From contig QQUE01000004.1 of NCBI GenBank assembly GCA_008501765.1, forward strand, positions 186,001-250,000: a stretch of 64,000 nucleotides of DNA. Reading direction: 5' to 3'. This DNA is from Calditrichota bacterium. GTDB taxonomy: Bacteria > Zhuqueibacterota > Zhuqueibacteria > Zhuqueibacterales > Geothermadaptataceae. The translations under genes were made by a program, and so were the position numbers. Shown here one piece after another: positions 381 through 55,466 of the stretch (positions within the stretch are counted from its first letter, which is position 1; each line of letters starts with the position of its first letter). The notes beneath the pieces were generated by a model. That model had not been told where the DNA came from. It saw nothing but the letters and a program-made list of their open reading frames with translations, and made no database searches.

Positions 381-2264
381 ATGTTCAACCTTCAATCCGT
401 AAATTCTAAAATTTTCCTGACTCTAATATTTACTTTACTGCTTTTTTCCTGTGCTAAAAACAAAGAATTATCGGATATCCCAAAGGATCCTCACTCCTGG
501 TCAAATCCACAGGAAGTCATCGTCCAGCATCTGGCGTTGGAGCTGAATGTTGATTTTAATGCAAAACAACTATCCGGTTGTGCGCGGCTGGAGATTCGCA
601 ACCACACAGGCATGGATACGCTCATTCTGGATACGAGCGATCTAAATATCGAACGCATCACTCTTGGGAAACAAGAAAAAGAGACCCCCTTCCGCCTTGG
701 AAATCCGGAAAAATACAAAGGCTCCCCGCTTTATATCGCGATAAAAAAATACACCCAGCAGGTCAATGTTTATTACAGCACCAACCCGCAGGCCGGCGCT
801 GTTCAGTGGTTAGCACCCGGCCAAACGGCCGGCAAAAAACTTCCCTTTTTATTCACACAAAACCAGCCTGTTTTTGCCCGAACCTGGATTCCCTGTCAGG
901 ATAGCCCGGGTGTGCGAATGACATATTCTGCGGAAATCACGGTTCCAAAGAAATTAATGGCGGTAATGAGCGCTGCAAACGGGACAGAAAAAGTTGAAAA
1001 CGGCGTCTATCATTTCGAGATGCCGCAACCAATTCCCTCCTACCTGATTGCGCTGGCGGTGGGCGATATTTCCTTCCAAGCCATCAGCGAGCGAGCTGGA
1101 GTTTATGCGGAACCATCGGTTTTAGCCAAAGCAGCAGCAGAATTTGAAGATACCGAAAAAATGATCATCGCAGCAGAGAAACTATACGGCCCTTATAGCT
1201 GGGACCGCTATGATATTATCGTCCTGCCTCCCAGTTTTCCATTTGGCGGCATGGAAAATCCACGGCTCACTTTTGCAACTCCGACAATTCTCGCCGGGGA
1301 CAAATCGCTCGTTTCACTCGTCGCCCACGAACTCGCCCATTCCTGGTCCGGCAACTTAGTGACAAACTCAACCTGGAGTGACATTTGGTTAAATGAGGGA
1401 TTTACGACCTATTTTGAGCATCGGATAATGGAAGAGATTTACGGTTTTGAATACAAGGAAATGTTGGCAAAACTCGATTATGATAATATTTTGCAAACAA
1501 TTCAGCAACACGGTGAGGACAATCCGGTAACAGCTCTGCGGCAAAATCTGGCGGCAGATGATCCGGATAATACCCCGACGGCCATTATTTATGACAAAGG
1601 GCACCTGTTTCTGCGAACGATGGAAACGTTAATCGGGCGCGAAGAATGGGACCAGTTTTTAACAAATTATTTTAACAAATTTTCTTTTCAATCCATGGAT
1701 TCAGAAAAATTTGTCGCTTATTTCGAAGACAAATTGATAAAAGAGGATGCGGAGCTTGCGGAGAAATTGCAACTTAAAAAATGGGTCTACGAACCCGGGT
1801 TGCCCGGCAACCATTTTGTAGTGAAATCGCCCGCGCTAAAACAGGTAAAAAATGAAATTACCGCGTTCAACAACGGTACAGCGGCAAGCGATCTCAAAAC
1901 CCAAAACTGGACATCGCACCATTGGCGCTATTTCGTTAAAAATCTACCCGCCGAACTCAGCAACAAGAAATTGTCAGACCTCGAGTCTACTTTTTCCTTT
2001 AGCAAAACAGGCAATTCCGAAGTCTTGTTTAGCTGGCTTATGCTTGCAGTAAAAAATCGATACTATCCATCTTATCTGGTTTTGGAAGAGTTTTTATCAG
2101 GCGTCGGCCGGGTAAAATTTATCGCACCACTGTATTGGTCTTTAGCACAAACTGAAGAAGGCCGGGCATTTGCCAGTCGCGTTTATAAAAAAGCCCGCGA
2201 TGGCTATCACCCCCTCGCGACAAGCGCCATTGACCCGATTTTGAAATTTGAAAGTGAAAAATAA
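381..2264 (+). CDS. M1 family metallopeptidase (LTA4H-like aminopeptidase), lipoprotein
   Basis: Zinc aminopeptidase that should remove N-terminal residues from peptides in the periplasm or at the cell surface. With the ATG at 381 the product is 627 residues. The GGMEN exopeptidase motif lies at about 289-293 and the zinc site HELAH at 316-320, with the third ligand Glu339 in NEGFTTYFE, the classic HEXXH-X18-E arrangement. The C-terminal third resembles the helical leukotriene A4 hydrolase C-terminal domain. The N-terminus is a lipoprotein signal (hydrophobic stretch ending LLFSC), which argues for membrane anchoring. A TTG 18 nt upstream is in frame, but CGGAG at 368-372 is placed correctly for the ATG. 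It is a single gene facing the next one tail to tail. Confidence 0.93.
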   Translation: MFNLQSVNSKIFLTLIFTLLLFSCAKNKELSDIPKDPHSWSNPQEVIVQHLALELNVDFNAKQLSGCARLEIRNHTGMDTLILDTSDLNIERITLGKQEKETPFRLGNPEKYKGSPLYIAIKKYTQQVNVYYSTNPQAGAVQWLAPGQTAGKKLPFLFTQNQPVFARTWIPCQDSPGVRMTYSAEITVPKKLMAVMSAANGTEKVENGVYHFEMPQPIPSYLIALAVGDISFQAISERAGVYAEPSVLAKAAAEFEDTEKMIIAAEKLYGPYSWDRYDIIVLPPSFPFGGMENPRLTFATPTILAGDKSLVSLVAHELAHSWSGNLVTNSTWSDIWLNEGFTTYFEHRIMEEIYGFEYKEMLAKLDYDNILQTIQQHGEDNPVTALRQNLAADDPDNTPTAIIYDKGHLFLRTMETLIGREEWDQFLTNYFNKFSFQSMDSEKFVAYFEDKLIKEDAELAEKLQLKKWVYEPGLPGNHFVVKSPALKQVKNEITAFNNGTAASDLKTQNWTSHHWRYFVKNLPAELSNKKLSDLESTFSFSKTGNSEVLFSWLMLAVKNRYYPSYLVLEEFLSGVGRVKFIAPLYWSLAQTEEGRAFASRVYKKARDGYHPLATSAIDPILKFESEK

Positions 2265-2326
2265 AGCATGCGGTGGATATAGCTGATGCGGGTACGCGAC
2301 TAAATCGTAGATCGACATCGATCCGG

Positions 2327-3271
2327 TCATTTTTTTTGAGGCAGATGCACCTGCGTCAGTCGATTTGTTTTGCCGGAGAAAGTATAATTATAGTACACCA
2401 AACGGCAGGGAATTTTAAGAAGTTCTTCGCTAATCGTAAAATAGCCGTTTTTAAATTGTGCCCAACAGATGGCTTCGCCCTGCGGTTCTGGAAAATAAGT
2501 AGCGGTCGTTGCCGGCCGCTGCAATACTTTTTCGATGGGCTCGGCGCCTTCACGCTTCCAGTAATAAACTGAGCCATACGTTTTTATCAGGATTTCTGTA
2601 CCGTCCATCGAAATATCACCGGACACCACCATCGACATGCCAATCATTGCGACAAAAACAGCTTCGTTAATTTCATGTATTTTCTGGGGATAAGCAATTT
2701 TATACACACGCGCGTCCCTTTCTCTTTTCGAGATCACAAACAAATCGCGGGTCAAAGGATCAAGCAGGATCGTTTCGGCATCGCGGGGGCCATCGGGAAA
2801 AGTGAACTTGATTGTATCATAAGCTCGTATCGTGTCGAGCGTGGCTTGTGCTTGCCAATTTACCTCCGGCTCGGGAAAACGCAGTATGGATTTAACTTTG
2901 CGTTTCGAATCGTTATCCCCGATATCTGCCATGTAAATATAGCTGATTTGGGTCAGCGGACCTGGGCCCACAGCCAGGTCTTCCGGATCGCGAATTTTAG
3001 GATTATCAATGTAGAACGCGCCACGACTTTTCCCTGCCACATCCAGCGCGAAGATAACTTTGCCCCAAATTTTGTCGTTGTGCGTCCAAAGAATCCCGGG
3101 ATTTCCCAGACTTGCAGCTAAACCCGATGCCTGATTTATTTGCGGATTTTCAACCGTAGAAACATGGGTGTTTTTGTTTAAAATTGGCAGGAGAATGAGG
3201 AGATTTAAAAGGCCGTACACGAGTAAAACAATGATACTCAGAAAAATAAATGGTTTGACCATCCTGATCAT
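2327..3271 (-). CDS. membrane-anchored beta-propeller-like protein of unknown function
   Basis: The 314-residue product has one hydrophobic segment at about residues 6-29 (signal anchor or uncleaved signal) followed by a soluble extracytoplasmic domain. That domain has spaced motifs such as ASGLAAS, LWTHND, DPEDLAVG and MADIGDN, which recur in proteins annotated as NHL/WD40-like or phytase-like propellers. SGLA, D-x-EDL and DIGDN spacings suggest beta-propeller blades with metal- or substrate-binding loops. I do not recognise a characterised homologue, so no reaction is assigned. It converges on the M1 peptidase gene with a 62 nt gap. Confidence 0.75.
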   Translation of the reverse strand: MIRMVKPFIFLSIIVLLVYGLLNLLILLPILNKNTHVSTVENPQINQASGLAASLGNPGILWTHNDKIWGKVIFALDVAGKSRGAFYIDNPKIRDPEDLAVGPGPLTQISYIYMADIGDNDSKRKVKSILRFPEPEVNWQAQATLDTIRAYDTIKFTFPDGPRDAETILLDPLTRDLFVISKRERDARVYKIAYPQKIHEINEAVFVAMIGMSMVVSGDISMDGTEILIKTYGSVYYWKREGAEPIEKVLQRPATTATYFPEPQGEAICWAQFKNGYFTISEELLKIPCRLVYYNYTFSGKTNRLTQVHLPQKK

Positions 3272-25166: not shown

Positions 25167-25447
25167 CTAAATAAACTAAAACGCGTTTCGGGTTACAGTT
25201 ACTTGAAACAAAAAAATCAATTTTCAAGTTTTTTAAAAAATAAGTACTGAAATTAGTGTGTCGGTAAATGGCTCAGCATTCCTTTTTAACAATCCCGAAT
25301 ATCTCCGTCAACTTCAATTTGATGCATCACGATTTTATTCTCATCTTACTCCCTTTTAACCGACAATACTACCTGCAATAAAAAATACGAAAGTAAAAAT
25401 AGTGAACCAAGTAAATAATTGTTGCAATGAATTCCGGTTTTATGTAT

Positions 25448-25632
25448 AACGTCGCCGGATGAGCCGCGAGACTCGCAGGCGCGGGGAAGGGTGTTTTTCC
25501 ATTTTCCGTGCAGAGAATCGCAGACGGCTATAGGTGGAGCGCTTCGCGCGGAACCAATCATGGCCAATGGAGCGAAGCGCATCCGGCGACGATACGTTGA
25601 CCCGCAGCGAAGCGGAGCGGTCAACGTATCGT
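25448..25632. repeat. GC-rich structured repeat, family C, copy 1
   Basis: A large inverted pair, GTCGCCGGATG (25451-25461) and CATCCGGCGAC (25580-25590), encloses GACTCGCAGGCGCGGGGAAG and GAATCGCAGACGGCT segments. It is followed directly by a second perfect 12 bp stem (25591-25602 with 25619-25630) around a GCAGCGAAGCGGAGC loop. The same layout occurs at 30145-30345. A frame runs through on the minus strand but it is the by-product of GC-rich sequence. The rest of 25167-25884 shows no gene. Confidence 0.85.
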
Positions 25633-25884
25633 TTAAGATAAGGTGATTTGCCATTGTAAAAGTGCCGTAACTCAGGTCATGCCATGCGTGGCAAATTCAC
25701 CTTAATTTCTTTGTTATAACACGTTATGTCCAATTGATTGAATGCTAAAACTTAAAAGAAAATAACAAACCGGTACACCAAGTGCCATTGTTTTTGAAAA
25801 ACTAATGTAGGGCAAATTATGAATAACACACAAAGAAAAATGCTAGTATGGAAAAAGGGTAGGGAAGAATATTTTCAAATTTTT

Positions 25885-27834: not shown

Positions 27835-30045
27835 TCATATTGTCTCTTCCTCGAGATTCATCATCATTTTATAGTGTCCTTCGTGCTTGGTTAGAACAAA
27901 AATATCTTTAAATACCTTTTTGTAAGCATCAATTGTCCTGTCTTGAAGTTCTATGTATAAGTCGTCATTAATACTATGCGAACCATCGTTTATCCATGAA
28001 ATCAAAGACCTACAAATTTCCTGTTCTTCCTTAGTTTCAAATTTCAGAATTAAATCATCGTCACCATATTTGCCAAGTAATTTAAAATAATTTTCAATTA
28101 TTCTTCGCATAATATTTTGAATAGTAAGGTTTGATTTAATTCCTCCACTTTTCAATTCTTGCCACAAAAGTCCGTATGAAGATTGAATTGGATTGTCCAT
28201 TTCAAAACTCTGCAAAGTAGTAATTTTATCATTTTTCCTTAAAATCCAAAAATTAGTCTTGCTGCAAAATTTGGTTCTACCATCAATGAAAGAAACTTCT
28301 TTATGGAAATATACATTGTGGGTTAGTAAAATTAACTGCTTAATATTTCCTGTATCAGCTTTAATATTTTTGATTATTTCTTTGATAAGAGTACTTACAA
28401 CAAATAAAACATTGCTGTCTAAACTGGAAATTGGGTCGTCAATTACTAAGACTCTTTCATCGCTTACTTCTTCCTCTGAAATCCCACCTTTCGTAAGTTG
28501 CAAATAGTATAAAAAAGTAATGAATGTTATTTCCCCTTCGCTTAGCGTTGTTTCTGCTACTGAGCCGTCTTCACGTTGGATTTGATAAAAGCCTTCTTCT
28601 TGTGCAGGAACAATTTCAAAATTTAGAAAACCGTAGGATTTCAAAATCCTATTGATTTCATTGATAGTAGGCTGAATACTTGTTACATTCTTGCTTAATA
28701 TTTTTATTTCAGCATCTAGTTTGTTGTATTCAACAAGTTTTTCATTACGTTGTTTTTCTAAATTTTCAATGCCTTTTTCTAAACCACTTTTTTGGCTGTT
28801 GAACGCTGTTATTTCTGTTTTGAATTCTTCAATTAAGTATTTCCAAATAGATTTAATAAGTTTGCTTCTTTCTGTTGCATAATTTGTTACGATTTCATTA
28901 TGTTTTTTGATTTCAATATTTGCTTGTTTGATTAGCCTAGTTATTAAATCTGCTTGTACCTTTATTGGAACTAATTGAATGCTTCTGCTTGGTTCTTTAA
29001 TCTTGTTGTTTAGATATTCATTGTTTGTGGTGTTTTGACTTATCAATGTTTTTAAGTATGCCGAAAATTTGTCCACGTCAAGTTTTGTATTGCTAAAAGC
29101 CTTTTGATTAGTTTCAATTCTATCTAATTCGTTAATGATATTTAGGGCTATAATGTTGTATTCTTGTTTTAACTCTTTGAGTAGTGTAATGTCATTCAAA
29201 TATGTTTCATCAAAAAAACTTTCTATTTGCGTTTTAAAGTCGTCAGTTATCGTTTTTTGTTGGCAAAAAGGACAAGTATCGTCTTGAATGTATTCTCTAC
29301 CTTGATTCACCCAATCGTTGATATTCAGTTTTTGGATTAGTTTAGCAATATCAACATCAGCTTTTCCTACAATAATTCTTTTCCATACTTCATTGGCTTC
29401 AATTTCTACAATTTTGTCAAATGAAATTTGACTGATTTCGTCTATTCTTTGCGGTTGCTCTCCAAATATTGTTTTGGCTTTAGCTTGTAAGGTGTCAAGA
29501 GTTTCTAATAAAGAGTTGTTGTTTTCAAATTCTTGTAAAAGCTTGTTTTTGAAAGATTCCTTTTGAAGTGAACCTGCAAATGCGTCCTTAAAGGCGATTT
29601 CATTTTTCTTGTAAACTTTTGTCCAAGTTGTTTCTTTGAAACTGTTCACTAATTCTTCTTTTATCTTTTTCTGTTTGTCTAAAGTTTCACGTTTTTGTAG
29701 TCCTTCAGCTTTAATAATTTTAAGTTCATCATTTTTTTTCTCAATTTCTTTTATTTGGTCAGCAGTAGCTTCGCCAAGTGTAAAAACCCCATTTAGCTTT
29801 CCTTTTCCAAAATTTTTTACTCTAAATTCCTTGTTGTAAACCAAAACTTTTAAAAGCAAGTCATTTTGCCAAGTCAAGGAGCAATTACTGAATTTCGAAT
29901 CTGAGCTGTCGTGAACAAAGTTTGAAATAGTAGTCTTACCGCAAGCATTTGCACCATAAATGAAATTGACTTTTTTCAAGTCGTTAATTTGAACACCTTG
30001 ATTGTCAAATGTCGCTATATTTTTTATGCTAATTGATTGTATCAT
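27835..30045 (-). CDS. RloC-like ATPase, candidate anticodon nuclease
   Basis: The 736-residue protein has an ABC/SMC-type ATPase split by coiled coil: Walker A GANACGKTT (31-39), coiled coil (about 95-455) with a zinc-hook CPFC at 258-261, signature LSEGE (501-505), Walker B VLVIDDP (532-538) and H-loop THN (575-577). The C-terminal domain has Arg647-x3-Glu651 (MRRIIEN) and His690 (NDGSH), which can match the Arg-Glu-His triad of PrrC/RloC anticodon nucleases. RloC cleaves tRNA anticodons as an antiviral or DNA-damage response. It is AT-rich and lies in a repeat-bracketed block, which suggests transfer. Alternative: a general AAA_13 ATPase without nuclease activity. Confidence 0.8.
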   Translation of the reverse strand: MIQSISIKNIATFDNQGVQINDLKKVNFIYGANACGKTTISNFVHDSSDSKFSNCSLTWQNDLLLKVLVYNKEFRVKNFGKGKLNGVFTLGEATADQIKEIEKKNDELKIIKAEGLQKRETLDKQKKIKEELVNSFKETTWTKVYKKNEIAFKDAFAGSLQKESFKNKLLQEFENNNSLLETLDTLQAKAKTIFGEQPQRIDEISQISFDKIVEIEANEVWKRIIVGKADVDIAKLIQKLNINDWVNQGREYIQDDTCPFCQQKTITDDFKTQIESFFDETYLNDITLLKELKQEYNIIALNIINELDRIETNQKAFSNTKLDVDKFSAYLKTLISQNTTNNEYLNNKIKEPSRSIQLVPIKVQADLITRLIKQANIEIKKHNEIVTNYATERSKLIKSIWKYLIEEFKTEITAFNSQKSGLEKGIENLEKQRNEKLVEYNKLDAEIKILSKNVTSIQPTINEINRILKSYGFLNFEIVPAQEEGFYQIQREDGSVAETTLSEGEITFITFLYYLQLTKGGISEEEVSDERVLVIDDPISSLDSNVLFVVSTLIKEIIKNIKADTGNIKQLILLTHNVYFHKEVSFIDGRTKFCSKTNFWILRKNDKITTLQSFEMDNPIQSSYGLLWQELKSGGIKSNLTIQNIMRRIIENYFKLLGKYGDDDLILKFETKEEQEICRSLISWINDGSHSINDDLYIELQDRTIDAYKKVFKDIFVLTKHEGHYKMMMNLEEETI

Positions 30046-30144
30046 TTTTTAATTGTGTTTATCTATAGGGTATGTCATTTAAGCTTACAGCTAACCACTA
30101 AACCTCGCTGTTACCTGTACCGGGTAACTTGCAACAAAAAATCT

Positions 30145-30345
30145 AACGTCGCCGGATGAGCCGCGAGACTCGCAGGTGCGGGGAAGGGTGTTTTTCCCTT
30201 TTCCGTACCGAGAATCGCAGACGGCTCCATTGGCCTGATAGGTGGAGCGCGGAGCGCGCAACCGATCTGGCCAATGGGGCGAAGCGCATCCGGCGACGAT
30301 AGAGGTGACCCGTAGCGAAGCGGAGCGGTCAACTCTATCAGTTAA
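30145..30345. repeat. GC-rich structured repeat, family C, copy 2
   Basis: Same orientation as copy 1. Outer pair GTCGCCGGATG (30148-30158) and CATCCGGCGAC (30287-30297); second stem 30298-30310 with 30327-30339 around the conserved GAAGCGGAGC loop. The arms of that stem differ from copy 1 but still pair. The rest of 30046-30586 has no gene. Confidence 0.85.
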
Positions 30346-30586
30346 AATAGATAGAAAAATTTCCACTCTATTACAATTATAGTCTGTAAAATTATCTACA
30401 TATTGCGATATTAATATAAGATAGTGGAAAAAAATCCCTGAATATTACCTCTATTATTCAATAAAACCAATAAGGTGGAAAACACAAGAAAAATCGAACG
30501 AAAATCCAGTCACGATAAATACTGTGACCGGGAGAAAGACTTCTTCTATAACGCTGAGAAATCAGCAGCTCCGAGAGATATAAATA

Positions 30587-50735: not shown

Positions 50736-50757
50736 TTAAAACCTTTTTCGTTTGAAT

Positions 50758-50797
50758 GTTGGGACGTTGGAACGTTAAAACGTTAAAACGTTGGAAC
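50758..50797. repeat. short tandem ACGTT repeat
   Basis: Four 10 bp units of the form GACGTTGGAA/AACGTTAAAA follow each other. It sits in the gap between the inserted helicase-nuclease gene and the acyl-CoA ligase gene, a place where an insertion boundary would be expected. Confidence 0.6.
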
Positions 50798-50868
50798 TGA
50801 TAAATATGCTGAAAAAAATTGCAATAGTGTTCTACTGAGCTGAGAAAAATGGAATGATATTTAATACA

Positions 50869-53800
50869 TTAGATTTCTTTTTTCTTCCACCAAGCATTTT
50901 TTTTTGCGGAAAATCGATACCCTGTTTTTTTTACAGATGACCAGTACAGAAGTTTTGATTCCCATTCATTCACATTGCTTTTTTCAGCTCTGTTGATTGA
51001 ATCCTGATATTGATTTTTTGATATTTGAGTTTGTGAAATGCTGTATTCATGGATTTGAGAGTCGAATGACTTTGATCGTATGTTTGAATTTATAGCTGAT
51101 TCCATGTTTTTCTTTGCATTCCTTCCATTCAAATCTGAATTCTCTAACCATTCACATTTAGGCCATCTTGAACAACCAAAAAATTCTTTATAAGGATATT
51201 TACGTTGTTTTTTCGTAACTATATATCCAACTGAACACATTGGACAGGTATCTCCATTTCGATTTGTATTTTTTAATAAACTTTCTAATTTAAATTTCTC
51301 AAAAAGTTCATTTGCGGACCTTTCTCCTACGACTCGTTCCATATATTCAGTTCGTGTATTATGGCTCAATATATTTAGACTTCCAATCCACTTAATTTTT
51401 CGATCGATTAGAGCGATTTTCTCATGCATGTTCTTTCGGAATTTGACAATTACACCTATGGATTTTAAATGTTCCAAGACATTCCTAGCGTTATCTCGCA
51501 TTACTGCGGGCTGTTCATTTGGTGAAAGTGTAATTACATAAATATTTATATTCTTAGATAAAAGCTCAATAAAATAGTTTGATAATTTACCCACGCGTTC
51601 AATTGTCAAAAATGGACTAAAAATAATTAACTCGTCATTTACGTGACTTAGATCTTTTAAAAATGAAGGCCAAAATTCATCTGCTGTAAAGCTGCTGCCT
51701 TGGATAAATTCTCTTTTGTTTGTAGAGTTTATTTTATCAACCCAATACTCGAAATTGCTATCTTTTAAACCATTAAACAATTCTGTTGAGGGCACTACCT
51801 TACCTTTTTTTCTAAAATGATTTAAAACCTTTAAAAACATCGTATCCGGAGGAAATACCTTGGTAAAATAGTTGCAATTAGCTACTAAATATAGTTTTGA
51901 AGATGCTCGTGTTAATGCAACATTCAACAACAATTTTGATGATTCTAAATTATCGTAGTCATTAAGGATTGACCACTTCTTGCTACCTAATCCTTCTACT
52001 GAGTCGAATATGATTACTTCTTCTTCACCACCTTGAAAACTATGCACTGTATTAATTCTTAAGTTATTGTTTCTAAAGAGATTTCTATCTTCAGCAATTC
52101 TTAATAATAATCGAGCATGCTTTTGATATGGAGTGATTATACCAACGGTAATTTTATTGTGTCGTATATCATCCAAAATAATTGATGCTAACTCAATAGA
52201 AATCAAACCACTTATAAGATTAAATCTACCACGGTCAAATTGGCTGCACCAAGGATTTTGTAAAGATGTATCAACAAGACAAATGGGTGAATTCCCTGAT
52301 ACCTTATCATATGTGGTTTTTGTACTAGTATTTTCTGCATCCATTAATCTCCCATTATATATTTCCCTTTTTGGAATTTGTGAGATCAATGGGTTCATTC
52401 TGTATTGAGTATCCAGCAAGACAACTCGATGATCAGAACAAGCTTTACTTATTTGATTAATTCCCAAAACATCAAATATGTTTCTCTTAAGCCATTTTTG
52501 AGCAAGCACTTCTCTGGATATGCAAATTGGTGGAAGTTGCTTAAAATCCCCTACAATTGTAATTCCTTTTTTTACTTTTGATGCTGACCAAAACAGCATA
52601 GGTAGAGGTGCCATACTAGTTTCGTCAACAATCAAGATATCAAACTGTATTTTATCAATTTCTTTCGATAAATAAGACTTTGATAAAGTTGTTGCCACAA
52701 GTTGTGCTTCATCAAGAATTTGATTTTTAATATTCTCTATATTTGTATTTATTTCATCAATTTTATCTTTGGTTAAATCCCGTTGTGTTTCAAGGTCCTC
52801 CAATATTTTTGTTATTTCTTTGAAATTAGAATATTTTTGTACTTTAGGTCGCAGTGATTCCCTTAGTTGATGGTTTGAATTCTTACAGTCTTTCAGCCTA
52901 TTTCTATGTACATTTAATAGTTCTTTTAATTTTTGGATTTGATTTGAATTTAAATTTACTTTTTGAATTACGTCAATTCTCTCGCTTTTAATCTTGTTAG
53001 GATCAAGCCCAAAAATAATTTTCTTGAATCCACTGGTGTCGGCTATAGTTTCAAGTTTTCGCTTTAGCTCATTTGATTTGTATTGTAATCTTCGTGTTTC
53101 ATGCCTGAAATGATGAATTTGGTGCTCTATATTTTGACAAGCAATTTCTTCCTGTTGAATACTTTTAATTAATTCCTTTAATCGCTCAACATCCAAAACC
53201 ACATTTTTAAGTTTTTCAATTTCGGAATTGAGTTTTTCTAAATACAGAGAAAGCTTTCTCTTCTGTGCTATTAATTCTGACGATTTGTGCTCAGCAATTT
53301 TATCTAATAAAACAAGAGGATAGTGAGTTTCAAATTTTTGCAGCATTTCAGCCTTTGGGGTGCCAAGTCGTACTAATTTGCAGTCTTTATAAAAGAATTT
53401 TTTTGTCTCGAATGCAACTTTCTCTAGTGCTTGGTCGACAGCATTATTGGCATGTGAAAGCAAGAGAATCTTTCTACCTAAATTCATATGACCATAGATT
53501 GCCTGAGCAATTGTTGCTGTTTTCCCCGTTCCTGGAGGTCCCCATAAAATTGATATAGAGTTATTTATTGAAGAAAATATAGCTTTTTGTTGAGATATGT
53601 TTGAATTGATGTTTGTAAAAGTATTTAAATCTAATTGTGGCCTATTAGCATCTTTGATATTCTCGGAATACCCACTAAATAGTTTATAGCTAGTTGCAAA
53701 TCTTTCAACTTCATTTTCATACTCTTCATATTTTTTCTTTAATAACTCTAAGAGATACCATGTATTTGTTTTAATCCTAGCTTTATGAATTATACTCTCT

Positions 53801-54129
53801 AATTTTTCCTTTACTGATATTTGAACTAGCTGGCCATTAACAGAGATAATCTCACATTCAAATTCCCTTCCATCAACATCCAATATTGCTGGAGTATCTT
53901 CTAGTACAACAATAAAATTCTCAAGGTGAAACTGATAAATATAAAATTCTAAAGTTTTTTTAAGGAATTTCCCATTAGTAACTAATACAATACCGCTTCC
54001 TTTTCCTAATTTAAGTGCATGTATTTCATCGTCTAATGCTTGCTTAAATTCTTGAATTATTTTATTGATCTTTTCATTAGTTTTCATCATACCACTAAAA
54101 ACTTCATTAAAAGATGATCCGGATAGCAC
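50869..54129 (-). CDS. Upf1-like helicase fused to PLD nuclease and zinc ribbon (Mokosh type II-like)
   Basis: The 1086-residue protein has a superfamily 1 helicase with Walker A GPPGTGKT (about 197-204), a long coiled-coil insertion (about 270-430), Walker B DILIVDETS, GDFKQLPP, LLDTQYRMNP, VHSFQGGEEEVIIFDS and NVALTRASSKLYL, all in the COG1112/Upf1 order. A phospholipase-D-type nuclease follows with HEKIALID (His902, Lys904, Asp909) and GSLN, then a topoisomerase-like zinc ribbon (CPMC ... CSRWPKC). This matches the one-gene Mokosh type II (MkoC) antiphage layout. A GTG starts the frame at 54129; ATG at 54090 is also possible. It is very AT-rich compared with both neighbours. Confidence 0.82.
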   Translation of the reverse strand: MLSGSSFNEVFSGMMKTNEKINKIIQEFKQALDDEIHALKLGKGSGIVLVTNGKFLKKTLEFYIYQFHLENFIVVLEDTPAILDVDGREFECEIISVNGQLVQISVKEKLESIIHKARIKTNTWYLLELLKKKYEEYENEVERFATSYKLFSGYSENIKDANRPQLDLNTFTNINSNISQQKAIFSSINNSISILWGPPGTGKTATIAQAIYGHMNLGRKILLLSHANNAVDQALEKVAFETKKFFYKDCKLVRLGTPKAEMLQKFETHYPLVLLDKIAEHKSSELIAQKRKLSLYLEKLNSEIEKLKNVVLDVERLKELIKSIQQEEIACQNIEHQIHHFRHETRRLQYKSNELKRKLETIADTSGFKKIIFGLDPNKIKSERIDVIQKVNLNSNQIQKLKELLNVHRNRLKDCKNSNHQLRESLRPKVQKYSNFKEITKILEDLETQRDLTKDKIDEINTNIENIKNQILDEAQLVATTLSKSYLSKEIDKIQFDILIVDETSMAPLPMLFWSASKVKKGITIVGDFKQLPPICISREVLAQKWLKRNIFDVLGINQISKACSDHRVVLLDTQYRMNPLISQIPKREIYNGRLMDAENTSTKTTYDKVSGNSPICLVDTSLQNPWCSQFDRGRFNLISGLISIELASIILDDIRHNKITVGIITPYQKHARLLLRIAEDRNLFRNNNLRINTVHSFQGGEEEVIIFDSVEGLGSKKWSILNDYDNLESSKLLLNVALTRASSKLYLVANCNYFTKVFPPDTMFLKVLNHFRKKGKVVPSTELFNGLKDSNFEYWVDKINSTNKREFIQGSSFTADEFWPSFLKDLSHVNDELIIFSPFLTIERVGKLSNYFIELLSKNINIYVITLSPNEQPAVMRDNARNVLEHLKSIGVIVKFRKNMHEKIALIDRKIKWIGSLNILSHNTRTEYMERVVGERSANELFEKFKLESLLKNTNRNGDTCPMCSVGYIVTKKQRKYPYKEFFGCSRWPKCEWLENSDLNGRNAKKNMESAINSNIRSKSFDSQIHEYSISQTQISKNQYQDSINRAEKSNVNEWESKLLYWSSVKKTGYRFSAKKNAWWKKKEI

Positions 54130-54230
54130 TCATAAGTTTCAATGATTTAATTAAATGCTGATTGAAGCCCCAGCAACCTTAAGGAGCAGAGAGTACCAGC
54201 AAAAATTGGTTCCCAGCGAGTTGCTAGAAA

Positions 54231-55466
54231 TTAGAATTGGAATTGAATCTGAATACTCGCGTGTGGGAAAACACCAATTTCACAGCCGTTCGGATGCCAT
54301 TTATTTATTTTATTTACAACGGTTTTCCAGTCGTTGGCAAAATGGTAGCCTTCCCAGTAAACCTGGTAAAATTCTTCTTCGCTGACGCCGGGCAGAAAAA
54401 AAATCACGTTGCGGTTTTTTAGAAATCGTTTCGGCATCGGTTTGCGGTAGAGCACGCCGGATTCGGGTTCGAAAAGGCCGTGCTTGCCCAGACCTTCGGA
54501 GCAGGCGGCAGTGACTACAATTGTGCCATTTTCCCGCACCAGATTTTCGCTAACCGTGTGCATGTACATAAAAGCGTTTTCCACCTGCAATAACTCTGTA
54601 TCTTTCGGATAGCTGTTAAAAATAGCAACATCGAGATTTTCAACCGCTTCCGTAGCGTAGACTTCTTTGGCGAATTCGGCGGCTTTTGCGTGGGCTTCGA
54701 TCAATTCTCCCGCAAAAAGCCCCGCCACCTCCCGCTTCGAATTGACGACGACATTCACACAAAAATCGATGCCAACGTGGCGGGCGACACGCTCGAACTC
54801 AGCGCGAAAGCGGTTATTTTCCAGCGTGCCCGGTTTGCTGCGCAAGCCCATCATTACGGCTTTGTGCGTCCAGGCGATGGAATCGAGATTGGACAGACCG
54901 GGCAGCACCATTTTGGCACCACCGCTGAATCCGGCAAAATGGTGCGGCACCACGCTGCCAATCAAAATACGAAAATCGGCTTCGAGAAAATCTTTGTTAA
55001 GCAACACTTCTGTTTTGCCAACCGAAATCCCGGTGGTTGCCAGATTATCATTGCAATCGTGGTTGATCACCCGAATGCTATCGACGATATTTTTGCCCAA
55101 CTTTTTGTAAAGTTGCTCGTTGCTGAGCGCCGTGTGTGTTCCGAGACTGATGATAATTGTTATTGCATCGGTGGGCACACCGGCATTATCGAGCTCGGCA
55201 AGGAGAAATTCCAGCACCTGTTCCGTTGGAGTCGGGCGACTCAAATCATCCACTGCGATGGCGATTTTCTTTTTATCAACCACCAGCTCGGCCAGCTTTT
55301 TTGTGCCGATGGGATCTTCGATAGCAGCAACGAGCTCATCTTCTTCCAGCTCAACTGCATCGGTCATTGGGTAAGTTTTAACTTGCCAATTTTGATCATC
55401 GGTTAATTGTAGCACGCTGTCGCCGTTCCATGCTGCCCACGGCAGAGCAATCCTGTAGTCCTGCAA
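54231..55466 (-). CDS. LarA-like (DUF2088) lactate racemase domain protein
   Basis: The 411-residue protein matches LarA in segments: VDDLSRPTPTEQVL, IISLGTHTALSNEQL, RVINHDCND, and GSVVPHHFAGFSGGAKMVLPG, which holds the His and Lys that bind the nickel-pincer cofactor. LarA-like enzymes racemise or epimerise 2-hydroxy acids or sugar acids. No larB/C/E cofactor genes are nearby. In a polysaccharide locus it may act on a sugar acid, but that is a guess. It stands between the inserted helicase-nuclease gene and the acyl carrier gene. Confidence 0.85.
   Translation of the reverse strand: MQDYRIALPWAAWNGDSVLQLTDDQNWQVKTYPMTDAVELEEDELVAAIEDPIGTKKLAELVVDKKKIAIAVDDLSRPTPTEQVLEFLLAELDNAGVPTDAITIIISLGTHTALSNEQLYKKLGKNIVDSIRVINHDCNDNLATTGISVGKTEVLLNKDFLEADFRILIGSVVPHHFAGFSGGAKMVLPGLSNLDSIAWTHKAVMMGLRSKPGTLENNRFRAEFERVARHVGIDFCVNVVVNSKREVAGLFAGELIEAHAKAAEFAKEVYATEAVENLDVAIFNSYPKDTELLQVENAFMYMHTVSENLVRENGTIVVTAACSEGLGKHGLFEPESGVLYRKPMPKRFLKNRNVIFFLPGVSEEEFYQVYWEGYHFANDWKTVVNKINKWHPNGCEIGVFPHASIQIQFQF

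What the first reader, a model, noticed from the sequence alone, without database searches (positions are those of the whole stretch)
50869..54129. Upf1-like helicase/PLD nuclease/zinc-ribbon protein: a Mokosh type II-like defence gene inside a polysaccharide locus
Seen: one AT-rich gene with all SF1 helicase motifs in order, an HxKx4D PLD nuclease site (His902, Lys904, Asp909), and a C-terminal C4 zinc ribbon, lying between the acyl-CoA ligase and LarA-like genes of a GC-richer surface-polysaccharide run. Known: Mokosh type II antiphage systems are one protein combining a COG1112 helicase with a PLD nuclease. Inferred: this is a member or a close relative, with a zinc ribbon that may be an extra nucleic-acid binding part.
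Basis: partly seen in the sequence, partly recalled or inferred. Interest (0 to 1): 0.78.

Follow-up and report, generated by a model that had tools for sequence, protein, structure and literature searches.

The report
Stand-alone helicase–PLD–zinc-ribbon defence-type gene
A single foreign gene in a bacterial polysaccharide locus encodes a helicase motor fused to a nucleic-acid-cutting domain and a zinc ribbon; it is probably a one-gene defence against viruses or plasmids, looks like the known Mokosh type II system, but belongs to a separate, unnamed family.

Summary
Window 50869-54129 (minus strand) is one intact 31% GC gene for a UPF1-like SF1 helicase, a single-HKD PLD nuclease domain (H902/K904/D909) and a C4 topoisomerase-type zinc ribbon. 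It lies between acyl-CoA ligase and LarA genes.

Two congeners have the two flanking genes directly adjacent, so this is a one-gene insertion; only 3 of 82 genomes of the phylum carry it. Full-length relatives (23-50% identity) are scattered over Ignavibacteriales, Chloroflexota, Verrucomicrobia and KSB1. Five of about 14 loci sit beside Zorya, HindIII-type restriction-modification, SIR2, TIR or HNH genes.

It is not Mokosh type II. Bona fide MkoC forms another helicase clade (grouping with MkoC rejected, AU p=1e-4; with a wider clade, p=0.018 or 0.20 depending on sampling). Its PLD domain matches a TOTE-like primase-helicase-PLD protein (E 6e-30) far better than MkoC (1e-12), and MkoC lacks the zinc ribbon.

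Best reading: a separate, unnamed family of single-protein helicase-nucleases, probably antiphage/anti-plasmid, that works like MkoC or SauUSI: an ATP-driven motor delivering nucleic acid to a PLD dimer. Defence is inferred and untested; trigger and substrate are unknown.

The parts
50869..54129 (-). whole ORF: helicase-PLD-zinc-ribbon protein, 1086 codons from GTG; probable real start ATG at 54090 or 54087
50789..54246 (.). segment with no counterpart in the congeners, where the acyl-CoA ligase and LarA genes are neighbours with about 220 and 167 bp between the matched blocks; contains this one gene only
53701..54087 (-). N-terminal stalk helix, six-stranded beta-barrel and second stalk helix (UPF1/IGHMBP2 '1B' domain-like), residues 15-143
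   Evidence: AlphaFold2 model; Foldseek matches to SETX, IGHMBP2 and UPF1
53518..53541 (-). Walker A GPPGTGKT, residues 197-204
   Evidence: invariant
52708..53352 (-). long antiparallel coiled-coil insertion in the first RecA domain, residues 260-474
52621..52626 (-). Walker B / motif II DE, residues 502-503
51874..52440 (-). second RecA domain (AAA_12), residues 564-752, including motif VI NVALTRA
51307..51648 (-). PLD nuclease domain (PLDc_2), residues 828-941
51403..51426 (-). single HxKxxxxD catalytic motif HEKIALID, H902/K904/D909, followed by GSLN
51136..51252 (-). C4 zinc ribbon of the topoisomerase I/III type, C962, C965, C986, C992
50872..50973 (-). conserved C-terminal tail (WESKLLYWSSVKKTGYRFSAKKNAWWKKK), shared only with the Ignavibacteriales relative L010

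Best explanation
A horizontally acquired, single-protein helicase-nuclease of a family distinct from Mokosh, most likely an antiphage/anti-plasmid system. SHOWN by sequence and model: a UPF1-like SF1B motor with 1B barrel, stalk and coiled-coil insertion; one HKD motif per chain in a PLD domain of the Zucchini/NucT/Nuc/BfiI kind; a topoisomerase-type C4 zinc ribbon; one-gene insertion; patchy spread over several phyla; several relatives beside known defence genes. INFERRED mechanism: because a PLD active site needs two HKD motifs, the protein works as a dimer held by its PLD domains, as in SauUSI. The zinc ribbon and 1B domain bind exposed single-stranded nucleic acid of an invader. ATP-driven translocation by the motor delivers that strand to the dimeric PLD site, or releases that site, and the strand is cut. 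Whether the target is DNA or RNA, and what gives self/non-self discrimination, is not known.
For: Domains and catalytic residues. Foldseek: SETX/IGHMBP2/UPF1 for the motor; Zucchini, NucT, Nuc and BfiI for the PLD part, model pLDDT 82. Profile match of the ribbon to topoisomerase III-alpha. Empty site in two congeners; GC and GC3 contrast. 3 of 82 phylum genomes carry it; 6 of 393 and 1 of 286 genomes in two other classes. Relatives in several phyla. A tree forced to group the KSB1 relative (same order) with the window clade is rejected, AU p=0.019, which fits horizontal transfer. Neighbours of relatives: Zorya ABCD, HindIII-type RM, SIR2_2, TIR_2, HNH/type IV. SauUSI precedent: PLD dimer plus translocating ATPase (PMC7913695).
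Against: The window gene itself has no defence gene beside it; the nearest is the PDC-S06 candidate about 21 kb away. About nine of 14 relatives also sit among ordinary genes, and no background rate for defence neighbours was computed. No phage assay of this family is known to me. The two relatives on the sister branch have lost the HKD motif, so nuclease activity is not kept in every related lineage, and one clade member (L064) has E in place of the motif's D. One clade member lacks the ribbon (L062). The full-length model is of modest confidence (pLDDT 69, pTM 0.36).
Confidence: 0.66

Rival explanations
1. It is a divergent Mokosh type II (MkoC) protein: the same family, with an added zinc ribbon.
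For: Same N-to-C order of COG1112-type helicase and PLD nuclease in one protein; significant MkoC and MkoA profile scores. With the smaller helicase set, a clade of this family plus its HKD-less sisters plus MkoC is not rejected (AU p=0.198).
Against: MkoC groups with a non-PLD helicase (bootstrap 99 and 93). Direct grouping with MkoC is rejected (AU p=6e-5 and 1e-4), and the wider clade is rejected with more sampling (p=0.018). The PLD domain is nearer to TOTE-like PLD (E 6e-30) than to MkoC PLD (1e-12), while MkoC PLD is nearest to MkoB PLD (1e-13). Best MkoC profile stretch covers only 857-1109 of 1136.
Confidence: 0.12
2. A housekeeping or stress helicase-nuclease for DNA repair or RNA turnover (IGHMBP2/Dna2-like work) with no defence role.
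For: UPF1/IGHMBP2/Dna2-like motor. Many relatives sit among ordinary genes.
Against: Absent from 79 of 82 phylum genomes and from the same site in both congeners. No IGHMBP2-family housekeeping helicase over cut-off in the group. AT-rich inserted gene.
Confidence: 0.12
3. A type IV-like restriction enzyme of the SauUSI kind that recognises modified invader DNA through its zinc ribbon and C-terminal tail.
For: PLD plus ATPase in one protein as in SauUSI (PMC7913695). PLD domain closest to TOTE-like proteins, one of which lies beside a DNA methyltransferase gene.
Against: The motor is SF1 UPF1-like, not SF2. No modification-reader domain was identified. Topoisomerase-type C4 ribbons bind single strands rather than reading a modified base (general knowledge).
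Confidence: 0.1

Closest known systems
Mokosh type II (MkoC)
   Same: One protein with an N-terminal COG1112/UPF1-like helicase and a C-terminal single-HKD PLD nuclease; copies lie near other defence genes.
   Different: Different helicase clade, different PLD lineage, no zinc ribbon in MkoC. MkoC profile score 101 bits against 938 for a bona fide MkoC fragment.
Mokosh type I (MkoA kinase-helicase plus MkoB PLD protein)
   Same: The helicase half scores highest against the MkoA profiles (181 bits).
   Different: No kinase domain, no separate MkoB gene; grouping with MkoA is marginally rejected (AU p=0.0497).
TOTE-like proteins (primase-like region, SF2 helicase, PLD nuclease)
   Same: The closest PLD domain found (30% identity, hhalign E 6e-30).
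   Different: An SF2 helicase and a primase-like N-terminal region instead of an SF1 UPF1-like motor. The TOTE label is mine, from memory of the architecture; no profile confirmed it.
SauUSI type IV restriction enzyme
   Same: PLD nuclease plus ATP-driven motor in one chain, dimer through the nuclease domains (PMC7913695).
   Different: SF2-type motor and a target-recognition domain for methylated DNA.
CnuH helicases of CoCoNuT systems
   Same: UPF1-like helicase with OB/stalk and a helical coiled-coil insertion; some types use a PLD effector (PMC11090510).
   Different: CoCoNuTs are operons with a McrB-like GTPase; none is near this gene. No CnuH sequence was compared here.

Membership tests
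Mokosh type II (MkoC) | single protein with N-terminal COG1112-type helicase and C-terminal PLD nuclease | tested here: met
   definition from PMC10013915 and PMC11672841
Mokosh type II (MkoC) | strong, full-length match to the MkoC profile | tested here: not met
   101 bits; best stretch covers 857-1109 of 1136; bona fide MkoC fragment 938 bits
Mokosh type II (MkoC) | helicase falls in the MkoC clade | tested here: not met
   AU p=6e-5 and 1e-4 for grouping with MkoC
Mokosh type II (MkoC) | PLD domain of the MkoC/MkoB lineage | tested here: not met
Mokosh type II (MkoC) | antiphage activity | not testable with these tools
   needs plaque assays
Mokosh type I | kinase domain in MkoA and an adjacent MkoB gene | tested here: not met
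   no kinase; single-gene insert
IGHMBP2-family housekeeping helicase (TIGR00376) | score above the curated cut-off | tested here: not met
   172 bits against 348.9
CoCoNuT CnuH | operon with McrB-like GTPase CnuB | tested here: not met
   no such gene among the neighbours
CoCoNuT CnuH | helicase falls in the CnuH clade | not tested
   no CnuH sequence was fetched
PLD nuclease superfamily | HxKxxxxD and GSxN motifs on a PLD fold | tested here: met

The most novel reading that the evidence does not exclude
An undescribed, rare and widely scattered family of one-gene immune proteins in which a UPF1-like helicase, a TOTE-type PLD nuclease and a topoisomerase-type zinc ribbon came together independently of Mokosh, with a sister branch (Aulosira, Cytobacillus) that kept the helicase and a degenerate PLD-like region but lost the catalytic motif.
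Probability: 0.55. Interest if true: 0.6.

Novelty: new variant of a known kind. Interest (0 to 1): 0.5.

Why it matters
If active, it would show that fusing a UPF1-like motor to a PLD nuclease arose at least twice in bacterial immunity, and that current Mokosh models score such proteins only partially and would misname them. It offers a compact one-gene system whose motor, nuclease and ribbon can be mutated separately, and a natural HKD-less sister group, to ask what the helicase senses.

Tried and rejected
(1) Mokosh II membership: rejected by profile, helicase tree with AU tests, PLD comparison and lack of ribbon in MkoC. One AU test on the smaller set did not reject a wider clade (p=0.198); four more helicases brought it to 0.018, so this point depends on sampling. 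(2) Housekeeping helicase: rejected by distribution and empty sites. (3) Phage-borne gene: two IMG/VR scans and the phage collection gave no full-length relative. (4) Target-site duplication, flanking repeats or integrase at the insertion: none found. (5) Partner gene in the insert: no room, about 80 bp and 117 bp outside the ORF. (6) Promoter scan: no more sites than in shuffled sequence. (7) A whole-chain fold comparison gave low TM-scores, probably from domain-placement error; the PLD-ribbon part was modelled again on its own.

Full report
OBSERVATION. Window 50869-54129 holds one uninterrupted minus-strand gene of 1086 codons. Relatives begin near residue 15-24, so the ATG at 54090 or 54087 is a likelier start than the GTG at 54129. 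Pfam gives AAA_11, AAA_12, PLDc_2 and a sub-threshold Zn_ribbon_Top1. The HEKIALID motif starts at H902, and the ribbon cysteines are C962, C965, C986 and C992. The gene is 31.3% GC against about 45.5% around it, with third-position GC of 24% against 53-59% in neighbours. The flanking genes are an acyl-CoA ligase and a LarA-like gene, as reported.

SITE. Two genomes of the same genus carry the ligase and LarA genes side by side, with about 220 and 167 bp between the matched blocks where the window has about 3.46 kb. In the congener with the longer contig the synteny continues on both sides. The insert holds this gene and nothing else. No duplicated target, flanking repeat or integrase was found. 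The window lies in a genome whose order-level relative G013 is labelled candidate division KSB1.

DISTRIBUTION. Only 3 of 82 phylum genomes have a full-length relative; 2 of 44, 6 of 393 and 1 of 286 genomes in three other groups do. The GTDB scan found full-length relatives in Ignavibacteriales (47% in the best segment; it also shares the C-terminal tail), Dehalococcoidia and other Chloroflexota, Verrucomicrobia and KSB1, and broken or partial ones in Phycisphaerae (in-frame TAG) and Thermodesulfovibrionales. The KSB1 relative groups with Dehalococcoidia genes (support 99), and forcing it with the window clade is rejected (AU p=0.019). This is the pattern of a transferred accessory gene.

DEFENCE CONTEXT. 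In five of about 14 loci a neighbour is of defence type: a complete Zorya type I set (L062), a HindIII-type restriction enzyme with a methyltransferase (L010), a SIR2_2 gene interrupted by a transposase (L008), a TIR_2 domain (L015) and an HNH nuclease (L016). The others are among ordinary genes. No background rate was computed, so this supports defence without proving it. The window has a second AT-rich lone gene, 27835-30045, that matches the candidate defence family PDC-S06 (895 bits).

STRUCTURE. The full-chain AlphaFold2 model (pLDDT 69, pTM 0.36, eight sequences) shows an N-terminal helix, a six-stranded barrel, a stalk, two RecA domains and a long coiled-coil insertion. Its best Foldseek matches are SETX, IGHMBP2 and UPF1. 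The PLD-ribbon part modelled alone is better (pLDDT 82, pTM 0.79) and matches Zucchini, NucT, Nuc and BfiI, nucleases with one HKD per chain that pair to make the active site (established knowledge). A profile search adds topoisomerase III-alpha for the ribbon.

MOKOSH OR NOT. The PADLOC profiles give MkoA 181 bits (helicase half only) and MkoC 101 bits; a bona fide MkoC fragment gives 938. In helicase-core trees the window protein sits with its relatives and two HKD-less helicases, while MkoC groups with another helicase (bootstrap 99 and 93). Direct grouping with MkoC is rejected (AU p=6e-5 and 1e-4). A wider clade joining family, HKD-less sisters and MkoC is not rejected with 28 sequences (p=0.198) but is with 32 (p=0.018). 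The PLD domain's nearest match here is a TOTE-like primase-helicase-PLD protein (hhalign E 6e-30), well ahead of MkoC (1e-12) and MkoB (2e-9), while MkoC is nearest to MkoB (1e-13). MkoC tails have no ribbon. So the design matches Mokosh II but membership fails on three tested features. The name TOTE is a recalled label for that architecture (PMC12458937 spells it out as TPR, OB, TBP, Effector), not a profile result.

MECHANISM. Shown: motor, nuclease motif, ribbon, single-gene insertion. Inferred: dimer through PLD domains, as SauUSI does (PMC7913695); capture of exposed single strands by ribbon and 1B domain; ATP-driven feeding to the nuclease. DNA or RNA as substrate is open.

VERDICT. A real, horizontally acquired one-gene helicase-nuclease, probably for defence, in a family with no model of its own in Pfam, NCBIfam, PADLOC or PHROGs as searched here. 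New variant of a known kind.

Noticed in passing
window 27835-30045, minus: A second AT-rich (30.5% GC) lone gene, an AAA_13/PrrC-like ATPase matching candidate defence family PDC-S06 at 895 bits.
   Followed up: partly
window 25447-25640 and 30144-30349: Direct repeats of about 207 bp, 85% identical, on either side of the region holding the PDC-S06 gene; whether they mark an insertion could not be tested because synteny with the congener is broken there.
   Followed up: partly
L081 (G001:C110) 482-3131: A broken TOTE-like primase-helicase-PLD gene in a congener, split over several frames.
   Followed up: no
L045 7980-10610; L046 8031-10256: Related helicases in Aulosira and Cytobacillus with a PLD-like region that has lost the HKD motif; the Aulosira one has two zinc ribbons.
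   Followed up: partly
L003 and L018: Two relatives carry an extra CxxC...CxxC ribbon between the N-terminal domain and the helicase.
   Followed up: no
L048 (OR851096.1): A record labelled Salmonella phage is a 2.9 kb contig holding an MkoC fragment and a restriction-type gene; 852 of 5426 E. coli genomes carry a 90-95% identical copy on the chromosome, so it is probably bacterial DNA.
   Followed up: partly
window 50749-50796: Short repeats with 8-nt spacing (ACGTTnnA type) in the intergenic spacer; similar ones occur in the congeners' spacers.
   Followed up: no
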